Shown piece by piece: positions 24,912 to 29,939 of a DNA stretch of 64,000 bases. A program made the position numbers and the translations under genes. Location of the stretch: contig NZ_CP019285.1 in assembly GCF_000226975.2 (NCBI RefSeq), positions 310,001 to 374,000 on the forward strand. Reading direction: 5' to 3'. Source of the DNA: Halobiforma lacisalsi AJ5. GTDB taxonomy: Archaea; Halobacteriota; Halobacteria; Halobacteriales; Natrialbaceae. Each line of letters opens with the position of its first letter. Within the stretch, counting starts at the first letter, position 1. The notes beneath the pieces were generated by a model. That model did not search any database, was not told the DNA's origin, and was given only the letters and a program-made list of their open reading frames with translations.

Positions 24912-24951
24912 TAATCCCGTAACAGTCGCTCCGCTTTACTCCGGGACTGCC
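24912..24951 (+). promoter_or_regulatory. Duplicated promoter element, copy 1
   Basis: TAATCCCGTAACAGTCG, followed by a TTTA core (24935-24938) and CCGGGA, lies just upstream of the first acidic-repeat gene. The same order (TAATCCCG, AAC, GTCG, TTTTA, CCGGGA) recurs before the second gene at 26522-26555 with similar spacing. TTTA sits about 29-32 bp before the ATG and probably forms the TATA region; the TAATCCCG part may bind a regulator. Confidence 0.6.
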
Positions 24952-24966
24952 GGTAGGTCGGCCTGC

Positions 24967-26160
24967 ATGGTTTCACGACCACAGACACTCGGAGTCGTCG
25001 TGATCGCGATGATGATTGCCCTGTCGGGACCGGCCCTGGCAGGTGCGACGTCCACACCCGACGACTCCGGAGACATGGGCGCGACGCTCGAAGGCGTACA
25101 GGTAGACACACTGGAACTCGACAACGTCACCGTCGAGAACGCGACGATCGAGGAGCTAAACGTCGAAGAACTCGACGCCGACGAGGACGAACTTCAGAAA
25201 CTCGTCGACGACGGTGACGGGGTTGCGGACGGCGAGTCCGACGACAGCGAGAGCGACAACGACACCGACGACACGCAGGTCTCCCTCTCCGACATCGAGA
25301 TCGAGCACCTCGAACTCGAGGACGTGACCCTCGAGGAACTCGAACTCGAGGAGAACGAGACGGACGACGAGATGGCTGAAGACGAGATGGCTGAAGACGA
25401 TGACGCCAACGGGATGGACGACAACGAAAACGGCGTCGACGAAAACGACGAAAACGAATCCGGGACCGACGACGAACTCGAGTTGATCGATGAGGACGCC
25501 GATGAGGTCACCATCGAGGACCTTACCATCGAGTCCATGGACGTCGATCAGTTGACGATCGACGAGTTGACCGTCGAAGACGACGGGAGCGACGAGGCCG
25601 AAGACACCAACGAGACGAGCGACGAAACCGAGGAGAACGAAGACAACGAGAGCGACGAAGAAGCCGGGAACGAACTCGATACCGAGGACGCACCCGAAGA
25701 CGACGAGACCGAGGAGAACGAAGACAACGAGAGCGACACTGGAGAGGAACGCCTCGAGGAACTCACCATCGAGCAGTTCGACGTCGAGGAGGTCACGATC
25801 GATTCGATGACCGTCGAGTCGGTCGACGCCGAGGACGACGACGAACTCGAGGCCGAGGACGAAGAGAACGGCGTCGTCGAGGACGAAGCCGACGCCCTCG
25901 AGGAGGACAACGAGTCCGACGACGGGATGGACGACAGCGTCGACGACGGATCCGACGAAACTGACGAGGAGAGCGACGACGGGGAGACCATCTCCGAGGT
26001 CTCCGCGACGTCGATCGACATCGGCGACGCGACCGCCGAGTCGTTCACTATCGGCGAAGCAGACGGCCTAGACGACCTCGGAGACGAGGAGACGGACGAC
26101 GACACCGACGATACCGACGACGAAGAGGACGACCAGCCGTCGATCGGCGCCCTGAACTGA
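24967..26160 (+). CDS. Secreted acidic protein with five pentapeptide-like blocks (paralogue 1)
   Basis: The 397-residue protein starts with a Sec-type signal peptide ([27 protein letters not shown], shown here in concept: about residues 1-27, AxA-type cleavage). The mature part has five short blocks with a hydrophobic residue roughly every second and fifth position, such as [17 protein letters not shown]: block A about 43-72, B 104-130, C 178-206, D 262-289, E 343-372. The blocks are joined by extremely acidic Asp/Glu/Asn/Ser linkers. The period suggests short right-handed beta-solenoid pieces, like pentapeptide-repeat proteins. There is no membrane anchor at the C-terminus. I recognise no named family. 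A paralogue follows 416 bp downstream with the same promoter motif. Confidence 0.85.
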
Positions 26161-26576
26161 TCACACCTACCGGCGCCCGTTCGACGTCGAACCGAGCGAA
26201 GACCGCATCGAGCGGTTCACAACGAGTTTCTTTTCGTGCCGACCCTGGTACCGCTCGAGACCGAACAGCGGACCTGTCTATCGCTCGTCGAACCCTCGAG
26301 CGAGGCGTCGGCGAGAACCGTAAACAGCAGTAAAATCTCGTTCCACGGCTGTTTCGATAAGACGGCGGCCAACGCAAGCACAACCCCGATTCCGGACGAG
26401 TTCCGGCTCCGTGCCGGGAACGGGGACCGTCGGCGGACCGGAGAGTATGAACGGCTGATTAGAATCCGCGCCGCGATTCCAACTTGCGGTTTCTCCGAGA
26501 GGTCGCTTCGAATCCGTGAGCTAATCCCGAAACGGTCGGCTCGTTTTAGCCGGGAGACGGCTGTAGCCCCCAGCGC
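26161..26576. other. Intergenic region between the two acidic-repeat genes
   Basis: These 416 bp hold no supported gene. The only recognisable feature is the second copy of the shared promoter element near the right end. The GC content is lower than the flanking genes in parts (for example AACAGCAGTAAAATCTCG). Confidence 0.6.
26522..26561 (+). promoter_or_regulatory. Duplicated promoter element, copy 2
   Basis: TAATCCCGAAACGGTCG, then TTTTA (26544-26548) and CCGGGA, correspond to the element at 24912-24951. The element is better conserved than the rest of the intergenic DNA, suggesting that it is functional and that the two genes share regulation. Confidence 0.6.
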
Positions 26577-27851
26577 ATGGTTTCACGACCACAGAAACTC
26601 GGCGTCCTGTTCGTCGTACTCGCGGTTGCGCTGTCGGGGCCTGCCCTCGCCGGCGCGGCCACGGACACGACGGACGACGCCGGAGACATGAGCACGAGCG
26701 CGACACTCGAGAACGTACAGGTCGGGACACTCGAACTCGAGGATGTGACGGTCGAGAACGTCACCATCGAGGAACTCAACGTCGAGGAGTTCGAGGTCCA
26801 GTCCGAGGATCTTCAGGAAGAGATCGATCAGGAGACCCAGAACGAGACCGCCGATGACGACGAAAACGCCACCGAGGACGGCAACGAAACGGATGGCAAC
26901 GAGACCGCCCAGGACGTGACGTTCTCGAACATCGAGATCGAAGAACTCGAGTTCCAGAACGTCTCGATCGAGGAACTCGAACTGGACGAAGGCGGCGCCG
27001 CCGATACGAACGAGACCGAGGATGACCCTGAAGGCGGAGACGACGAGGAGACGGGTCAAACCGACGAAACGGACGGCGGCCAACAGTTAATCGACGAGAA
27101 CGCGGACGAACTCACCGTCGAGGAACTCACCATCGAGACGATGGACGTCGAGCGAATGACCATCGACGACCTCGAGGTCGAGGACGGCGGGATCCTGAGT
27201 CAGATCGGCGACTTCATCAGCGGGCTGTTCGACGGCGGCGACGAGGAAGACGGGACCGACGAAACCGAGGAAGACACCCAGGAGACCGAAGACGGGAACG
27301 AAACCGACGAAGACGCCGGCGCCGATCAAGCCGACCAAACCGAGGACAACGAAACGACCAGCGAGGAGATAGGCGAACTCACCATCGAGCAGTTCGACGT
27401 CGAGGAGATCACGATCGAGTCGATGACGATCGACTCGCTGGAGGAAGCCGAAGACGGCGAAGACGCCCAGGAGACCGGGGAGACCGACGAAACGGAAACC
27501 GAAGACGGCGAAGACGCCCAGGAGACCGGGGAGACCGACGAAACGGAAACCGAAGACGGGAACGAAACCGACGCCGGTACCCAGGAAGACGAGGAGGCGA
27601 CCGACGACGCTACCGCCGACACCGAGACCGGCCAGGACGGCGAAACCGTCTCACAGGCGTCCGCGACGTCGATCTCGATCGAAGACGCCAACGCCGCGAC
27701 GGTCACCTTCGAGGACACCCAGGAGCTCGAGCAACTCGCCGGCGACGAGACCGACGAAAGCGAAGGCGGGAACGATACCGACACCGGTACCGACGGGGAC
27801 GAAGACGCCACGAACGACGACGAAGAACCTTCGATCGCCCTCCCGACGTAG
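26577..27851 (+). CDS. Secreted acidic protein with five pentapeptide-like blocks (paralogue 2)
   Basis: The 424-residue protein is a tandem paralogue of the preceding gene. The signal peptides are near-identical ([15 protein letters not shown]) and the five blocks recur in the same order: A about 45-74 ([15 protein letters not shown]), B 113-139, C 176-203, D 264-290 ([16 protein letters not shown]), E near 353-385 (SATSISIEDANAATVTF). Acidic linkers differ in length and sequence, so the blocks are under selection and the linkers are not. This copy also has a short amphipathic insert after block C (LSQIGDFISGLFDG) and an exact 17-residue duplication in the linker before block E. It should be extracellular; the function is unknown. 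Confidence 0.85.
   Translation: MVSRPQKLGVLFVVLAVALSGPALAGAATDTTDDAGDMSTSATLENVQVGTLELEDVTVENVTIEELNVEEFEVQSEDLQEEIDQETQNETADDDENATEDGNETDGNETAQDVTFSNIEIEELEFQNVSIEELELDEGGAADTNETEDDPEGGDDEETGQTDETDGGQQLIDENADELTVEELTIETMDVERMTIDDLEVEDGGILSQIGDFISGLFDGGDEEDGTDETEEDTQETEDGNETDEDAGADQADQTEDNETTSEEIGELTIEQFDVEEITIESMTIDSLEEAEDGEDAQETGETDETETEDGEDAQETGETDETETEDGNETDAGTQEDEEATDDATADTETGQDGETVSQASATSISIEDANAATVTFEDTQELEQLAGDETDESEGGNDTDTGTDGDEDATNDDEEPSIALPT
27451..27552 (+). repeat. 51-bp exact tandem duplication inside paralogue 2
   Basis: Two identical 51-bp units (27451-27501 and 27502-27552) encode a repeated 17-residue acidic linker peptide beginning EDGEDAQETG. The unit length keeps the frame, so this looks like recent linker expansion. 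Confidence 0.9.
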
Positions 27852-29203: not shown

Positions 29204-29806
<603 letters not shown>

Positions 29807-29939
29807 TCTCGAGTTCGAATCCGGTATAGGGACCGATAAGTCGACGGCCGACACTCGCGTGGTCGTTCGAGGGCCATGTGGGTTCACACCGCGCGATTTC
29901 CTCCCAAGGGTTCAAATCCATTCAGTGTCAGTGAACGGT

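What the first reader, a model, noticed from the sequence alone, without database searches (positions are those of the whole stretch)
24912..27851. Tandem secreted acidic proteins with conserved pentapeptide-like blocks: possible new haloarchaeal surface system
Two adjacent genes encode proteins with a shared signal peptide and five blocks in the same order (A to E), each of about 25-30 residues with a hydrophobic residue at short regular spacing, joined by non-conserved acidic linkers. The blocks look like pieces of a beta-solenoid. The block order is kept while the linkers vary in length, which is strong evidence that the blocks matter. Neither protein has an anchor or a recognisable domain. 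I know of no named family for them.
Basis: partly seen in the sequence, partly recalled or inferred. Interest (0 to 1): 0.78.

Follow-up and report, generated by a model that had tools for sequence, protein, structure and literature searches.

The report
Interrupted beta-solenoid secreted protein pair, haloarchaea
Two neighbouring genes in a salt-loving archaeon make exported proteins in which five fixed-length pentapeptide-like pieces, predicted to pack into one rigid core, are joined by floppy acidic or sugar-acceptor loops; the family is widespread in haloarchaea, has no name in the libraries searched, and contains almost no lysine or arginine, so routine trypsin-based proteomics would tend to miss it.

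Summary
Two adjacent paralogues (24967-26160 and 26577-27851, +) share a Sec-type signal peptide and five pentad-repeat blocks in the same order. In 54 homologues the blocks are almost free of length change (26-35 residues) while the linkers run from 13 to 112. Hydrophobic residues repeat every 5 (z = 7-8). The family occurs in 77 of 96 sampled genomes of the window's family (Natrialbaceae); divergent members with the same blocks occur in four other haloarchaeal families. No Pfam or NCBIfam model reaches its threshold; the recurring sub-threshold match is Pentapeptide_4.
AlphaFold2 orders all five blocks (pLDDT 85-93); pTM 0.53 implies that they pack together. No solved structure matches significantly.
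New findings: (1) a conserved pair at a fixed locus (tgtA | gene 1 - gene 2 | nudix); in 25 of 25 pairs only the downstream protein carries an amphipathic helix after block C; (2) a family-specific promoter motif 32-33 nt before the ATG; (3) linker chemistry switches between Asp/Glu-only, N-glycosylation sequons and Thr-rich repeats, and both paralogues of a genome share the state; (4) almost no Lys/Arg, so trypsin-dark.
Best explanation: a secreted, interrupted pentapeptide-type solenoid displaying hydrated polyanionic or glycosylated loops at the cell surface. Fold and function are inferred.

The parts
24919..24938 (+). Promoter motif of gene 1 (GTAACAGTCGCTCCGCTTTA), TTTA 32 nt before the ATG
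   Evidence: Family-specific motif, 69 of 72 Natrialbaceae upstream regions; position
24967..26160 (+). Gene 1 (upstream paralogue, no amphipathic helix), 397 aa secreted acidic protein
24967..25044 (+). Gene 1 signal peptide (MVSRPQ...ALSGPALA), approximate
   Evidence: Read from sequence; strongly conserved in 54 homologues
25081..25182 (+). Gene 1 block A
25276..25353 (+). Gene 1 block B
25483..25584 (+). Gene 1 block C
25744..25836 (+). Gene 1 block D
25984..26085 (+). Gene 1 block E
26529..26548 (+). Promoter motif of gene 2 (GAAACGGTCGGCTCGTTTTA)
   Evidence: The only 0-mismatch match in the whole genome
26577..27851 (+). Gene 2 (downstream paralogue, with amphipathic helix), 424 aa secreted acidic protein
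26577..26654 (+). Gene 2 signal peptide, approximate
   Evidence: Read from sequence; conserved
26700..26801 (+). Gene 2 block A
   Evidence: predicted strand 56-74 and helix 77-88
26913..26990 (+). Gene 2 block B
   Evidence: predicted strand 114-137
27087..27188 (+). Gene 2 block C
   Evidence: predicted strand 178-201
27189..27236 (+). Amphipathic helix GILSQIGDFISGLFDG, only in the downstream paralogue
   Evidence: 25 of 25 downstream, 0 of 25 upstream; hydrophobic moment 0.47, shuffle p 0.003; predicted helix 206-217, low pLDDT
27360..27452 (+). Gene 2 block D
   Evidence: predicted strand 262-290
27443..27559 (+). 51-nt tandem repeat (2.3 copies, 98%) in the D-E linker: linkers grow by in-frame repeat duplication
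27642..27743 (+). Gene 2 block E
   Evidence: predicted strand 356-378

Best explanation
Both genes encode Sec-exported proteins whose five blocks (25-27 pentads of the form [L/V/A/M]-T-[I/V]-E-x) fold back on each other into one compact right-handed, pentapeptide-repeat-like beta-solenoid of about 6-7 coils. The four inter-block linkers and the tail leave the solenoid as long disordered loops. In this genome the loops are polyanionic and carry some N-glycosylation sequons. The protein thus works as a stiff core that displays hydrated, charged or glycosylated loops outside the cell: a small mucin-like surface or matrix protein. The downstream paralogue adds an amphipathic helix after block C that attaches the assembly to the membrane or S-layer, or docks the partner paralogue. 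Each gene has its own copy of a family-specific promoter and is probably transcribed leaderless and strongly. Shown by sequence: two-gene pair, export signal, block and linker constraint, helix dichotomy, promoter conservation, linker switch. Predicted: ordered blocks that pack together. Inferred: right-handed 4-pentads-per-coil geometry, glycosylation, surface location, brush or matrix role, helix function, expression level.
For: Pentad periodicity z 7-8. Blocks almost indel-free while linkers vary 13-112 aa in 54 homologues. AlphaFold2: blocks pLDDT 85-93, linkers under 50, pTM 0.53; one isolated 30-residue block could contribute only about 0.1 to pTM (my estimate), so the blocks are predicted to be placed relative to each other, and unbroken strand assignments of 19-29 residues per block need partners outside the block. 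A divergent member gives the same strand and helix pattern at low confidence. The recurrent sub-threshold Pfam match is Pentapeptide_4, in 9 of 54 members, best E 2e-4, and in remote members to 1.6e-4. Linker sequon use: 887 sequons against 266 in local shuffles, bimodal across 81 proteins, anticorrelated with acidity (rho -0.79), concordant between the paralogues of a genome (rho 0.87). N-oligosaccharyltransferase (STT3/AglB) is in all 18 genomes tested. Helix in 25/25 downstream and 0/25 upstream proteins, amphipathic. Ancient paralogues kept at one locus. Promoter motif in 69/72, only these two strong sites in the genome.
Against: No PDB sequence match and no significant Foldseek match; superpositions are poor (TM at most 0.06 by query length, rmsd about 10-20 A), which the long linkers may cause but which also leaves coil order and handedness open. 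The second model is low confidence (pLDDT 48) and its fold search found nothing. The pentads are not canonical: position i-2 is bulky (L/V/M) rather than Ala. No block reaches eight contiguous repeats. No experimental evidence of export, glycosylation or surface retention was found. Conserved neighbours give no functional hint.
Confidence: 0.5

Rival explanations
1. The blocks are separate assembly motifs that pair between molecules (gene 1 with gene 2, or homopolymers), so that the proteins form an extracellular network with the linkers as spacers rather than a single-chain solenoid.
For: Each block is only 5-7 pentads, just over one coil; the two paralogues keep matching blocks in the same order over family-wide evolution; beta-solenoid edges often stack (general knowledge).
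Against: pTM 0.53 for a single chain suggests intramolecular packing; some genomes keep one copy only, so hetero-assembly is not required.
Confidence: 0.2
2. The proteins are extracellular cation (Ca/Mg/metal) buffers or chelators, the Asp/Glu linkers being the functional part.
For: 154-172 acidic against 1-2 basic residues in the mature chains.
Against: Acidity of the whole protein falls from about 0.5 to about 0.2 in lineages whose linkers are sequon- or Thr-rich, while the blocks stay; linkers are the least conserved part.
Confidence: 0.12
3. Surface decoy or variable antigen: hypervariable loops on a fixed core that evade or bind haloviruses or neighbours.
For: Linkers vary strongly in length and chemistry and grow by tandem repeats; chemistry differs even inside the window's genus.
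Against: Linker dN/dS is below 1 (0.44-0.59); no invertible or silent cassettes seen; no match in phage or plasmid records.
Confidence: 0.1
4. Ordinary low-complexity acidic proteins of no specific role, a by-product of the haloarchaeal acidic proteome.
For: Acidic composition is usual for haloarchaea (general knowledge).
Against: Nearly indel-free blocks, purifying selection, a promoter motif conserved across many genera, syntenic retention of two paralogues with a fixed difference.
Confidence: 0.03

Closest known systems
Pentapeptide repeat proteins (Pfam Pentapeptide, Pentapeptide_3/4; Rfr fold; e.g. AlbG, QnrB1, Rfr32, SV2C luminal domain)
   Same: Five-residue period with hydrophobics at i-2 and i, predicted all-strand coils, capping helices; recurrent sub-threshold Pentapeptide_4 matches. 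Known members have loop insertions of 6-24 residues (PMC8145042).
   Different: The repeat is broken into five blocks of 5-7 pentads by loops of 13-112 residues; consensus [LVAM]-T-[IV]-E-x instead of [STAV][DN][LF][STR][G]; export signal, extreme acidity and sequon-rich loops; no library threshold is met.
Halomucin (Haloquadratum walsbyi, PMC4378361)
   Same: Secreted haloarchaeal protein proposed to hold a hydrated layer around cells.
   Different: Halomucin is about 9000 aa with other domains; these are about 400 aa with a five-block core. Homology was not tested directly.
S-layer glycoproteins and PGF-CTERM/archaeosortase surface proteins
   Same: Secreted, N-glycosylation sequons, acidic.
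   Different: No C-terminal membrane segment or sorting motif; small; almost no Lys/Arg; no domain match.
Divergent members in other haloarchaeal families with a C-terminal Ig/CARDB-like domain (this work, L131-L135, L142-L146, L150)
   Same: Same kind of signal peptide, block A-E order and linker architecture.
   Different: Extra C-terminal domain, Thr-rich (ETTT) linkers in one family, an inserted helical domain between D and E in another.

Membership tests
Pentapeptide repeat protein superfamily | Five-residue periodicity with hydrophobic i-2 and i | tested here: met
   lag-5 z 7.0-7.8; position profile
Pentapeptide repeat protein superfamily | At least eight contiguous repeats (definition in PMC8145042) | tested here: not met
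   Longest run is 6-7 pentads (block A); the others have 4-5
Pentapeptide repeat protein superfamily | Consensus [STAV][DN][LF][STR][G] | tested here: not met
   Observed i-2 L35 V22 A13 M12; i-1 T51; i I35 V32 L18; i+1 E55 (percent)
Pentapeptide repeat protein superfamily | Reaches Pfam gathering score | tested here: not met
   Best Pentapeptide_4 E 2.3e-4 among 54 members; in the window protein 16.3 bits against cut-off 38
Pentapeptide repeat protein superfamily | Right-handed quadrilateral beta-helix | tested here: inconclusive
   Blocks predicted as packed strands; Foldseek not significant, coordinates not available for inspection
Archaeosortase (PGF-CTERM) surface proteins | C-terminal sorting motif plus hydrophobic segment | tested here: not met
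   C termini are acidic, ending PSIALPT / PSIGALN, no hydrophobic segment
Haloarchaeal lipoproteins | Lipobox Cys | tested here: not met
   No Cys in any mature protein of 54
N-glycosylated secreted proteins | N-X-S/T enrichment and oligosaccharyltransferase in the genome | tested here: met
   Family 887 against 266 expected; window 11 of 17 and 9 of 19 Asn; STT3 present
N-glycosylated secreted proteins | Glycans actually attached | not testable with these tools
   Needs mass spectrometry

The most novel reading that the evidence does not exclude
A new structural class: an interrupted solenoid in which every coil or so is separated by a long disordered loop, used by haloarchaea as a scaffold whose loop chemistry is exchangeable (acidic, N-glycosylated or Thr-rich, perhaps O-glycosylated) on one fixed core. 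That would make charge and glycosylation interchangeable solutions for the same extracellular function, in a core surface component missed because trypsin cannot cut it.
Probability: 0.35. Interest if true: 0.78.

Novelty: new variant of a known kind. Interest (0 to 1): 0.58.

Why it matters
A syntenic gene pair family found in about 80% of sampled Natrialbaceae, with divergent members in other haloarchaeal families, has no family name in the libraries searched and almost no Lys or Arg, so trypsin-based proteomics would tend to miss it. The linker switch (Asp/Glu against N-X-S/T against Thr repeats) on one conserved core makes a concrete question testable: can negative charge and glycosylation replace each other in keeping extracellular proteins hydrated at extreme salt? 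If the fold is right, it also widens what pentapeptide-type solenoids tolerate, from loops of up to about 25 residues to loops of over 100 between coils.

Tried and rejected
Known-family assignment: Pfam, NCBIfam and PDB sequence searches gave nothing above threshold. Mobile-element or viral origin: no match in plasmid or phage records; the locus is syntenic. Operon with conserved partners: neighbours are tgtA and a nudix hydrolase on the opposite strand, and in one genus the pair is split between two places while both members are kept, so no functional partner. Regulon search: the promoter motif has no other convincing site in the genome; the other hits have 2-3 mismatches and most do not sit at a start codon. 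Absence of the oligosaccharyltransferase as cause of the sequon-poor state: rejected, STT3 is present in all 18 genomes tested. The fold search with the divergent model was uninformative because the model is poor. Literature searches found no description of the family; only open-access papers were searched.

Full report
WHAT IS THERE. The window lies in the chromosome of a Natrialbaceae species close to Halobiforma haloterrestris. Two adjacent + strand genes, 24967-26160 (397 aa) and 26577-27851 (424 aa), encode exported proteins 53% identical to each other. They are the only two copies in the genome. Both start with a Sec-type signal peptide and then alternate five conserved blocks with Asp/Glu/Asn/Thr-rich linkers. 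The mature proteins have 154 and 172 acidic residues against 1 and 2 Lys+Arg, and no Cys, Tyr or Trp.

IS IT MORE THAN CHANCE. Hydrophobic residues recur at lag 5 and 10 with z about 7-8 and are depleted at lags 1, 4, 6 and 9. The pentad profile is [L/V/A/M]-T-[I/V]-E-x. In 54 homologues the blocks have almost no length variation (34-35, 26, 33-34, 31, 32-35) while every linker varies about three- to eightfold. dN/dS between related species is 0.12-0.30 in blocks and 0.44-0.59 in linkers.

DISTRIBUTION. A profile search of 392 Halobacteriales genomes finds the family in 110: 77 of 96 in the window's own family and 33 in four other families (lower bounds, as the profile is trained on Natrialbaceae). 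The divergent members keep the signal peptide and, in those read in full, the block order A-E; some of the weakest hits are shorter proteins that were not analysed. Many of those outside Natrialbaceae add a C-terminal Ig/CARDB-like domain after block E (my reading of the sequence; Pfam shows only weak Ig-like matches), and one family has a helical insert between D and E. No plasmid or phage record matches P0001.

THE PAIR. In nearly all Natrialbaceae loci the order is tgtA (opposite strand), gene 1, gene 2, nudix hydrolase (opposite strand). In one genus the pair is split, but the copy beside tgtA is still gene-1-like and the copy beside nudix gene-2-like. In 25 of 25 pairs the downstream protein, and never the upstream one, carries an amphipathic segment of the type GILxQIGDFFxGLF directly after block C (hydrophobic moments). 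A tree of the blocks clusters the two types (7 label changes against 24 in shuffles), so the duplication is old; many deep branches are weakly supported. Single-copy genomes mostly keep the helix-bearing type, and one divergent member from another family (L103) has the helix too.

PROMOTER. Upstream of both genes, and of 69 of 72 Natrialbaceae members, lies a motif of the form GTAACAGTCGNCTCGTTTTAG with the TTTA 32-33 nt before the ATG (the invariant positions are partly set by the search pattern). Haloarchaeal basal promoters have a TTWT TATA box and a CGAAA BRE, and 72% of Haloferax volcanii transcripts are leaderless, more so among highly expressed genes (PMC4983044). The spacing therefore suggests leaderless mRNA. 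The GTAACAGTC part has no other convincing site in the genome, so it looks like a private regulatory site.

LINKER CHEMISTRY. Across 81 proteins the share of Asn in N-X-S/T sequons is bimodal (47 below 0.2, 29 above 0.6; up to 42 of 42), with 887 sequons in all against 266 in local shuffles. Sequon density and acidity are anticorrelated (rho -0.79), and paralogues of one genome share the state (rho 0.87, 25 pairs, not corrected for phylogeny). In another family the linkers are ETTT repeats. The oligosaccharyltransferase is present in all 18 genomes tested. The window's pair is intermediate (9 of 19 and 11 of 17 Asn in sequons). I infer that the linkers must be hydrated and extended, and that charge and probable glycans do this interchangeably.

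FOLD. AlphaFold2 on the 54-row alignment gives high confidence in every block (pLDDT 85-93), disorder in the linkers, and pTM 0.53. Since about half of the chain is disordered, that pTM requires the blocks to be placed relative to each other. The 25-27 pentads would make about 6-7 coils of a pentapeptide-type solenoid. Foldseek found no significant match; the weak ones are mostly beta-solenoids, including AlbG and SV2. A divergent homologue gave the same strand and helix pattern but low confidence. Coil order and handedness are therefore open.

FUNCTION. The best-supported reading is a secreted stiff core that displays hydrated loops, i.e. a small mucin-like surface or matrix protein, with the helix of gene 2 as a tether or docking element. 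Export is supported by the signal peptide; localisation, glycosylation and role are inferred.

COMPARISON. The proteins work like pentapeptide-repeat proteins structurally but fail three formal criteria (eight contiguous repeats, consensus, Pfam threshold), so I do not file them there. They resemble halomucin in presumed role only. Verdict: an unnamed haloarchaeal family, a new variant of a known kind (pentapeptide-type solenoid), interest 0.58.

Noticed in passing
L158:1078-2067 (G267): A cytochrome c oxidase subunit II carries a pentapeptide-like insert (SDLTLENVTLDEATVTN...FSDVTVESATISDATIQNGTVSS) before or at the start of its periplasmic copper domain match, resembling the blocks of this family.
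   Followed up: partly
window 29357-29461: Perfect hexanucleotide array GAACGG x 17.5 (100% identical), probably non-coding.
   Followed up: no
window 29531-29887 (-): Small protein with an Arg-rich signal and lipobox ([20 protein letters not shown]) followed only by an acidic low-complexity tail: a possible lipid-anchored polyacidic tail near the pair.
   Followed up: no
L106/L107 (G344) and L108/L109 (G242): In one genus the pair is split to two places about 30 kb apart in each genome, gene 1 staying with tgtA and gene 2 with nudix, as if a rearrangement broke the locus between them.
   Followed up: partly
L142-L146 (family f5): Homologues with a helical domain inserted between blocks D and E and a C-terminal Ig/CARDB-like domain.
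   Followed up: partly
upstream regions, about -80 from the ATG: A second conserved element (TTCTAACTGTGNTTTTC) lies about 31 nt upstream of GTAACAGTC in many loci and resembles it; possible tandem regulatory sites.
   Followed up: no
L118|75 and L060|111 (G312, G029): Expanded upstream paralogues of 687-815 aa with very long linkers and a His/Lys/Cys-containing stretch (HTGACCGAADD, KHDDAHDDKH), possibly metal-binding.
   Followed up: no
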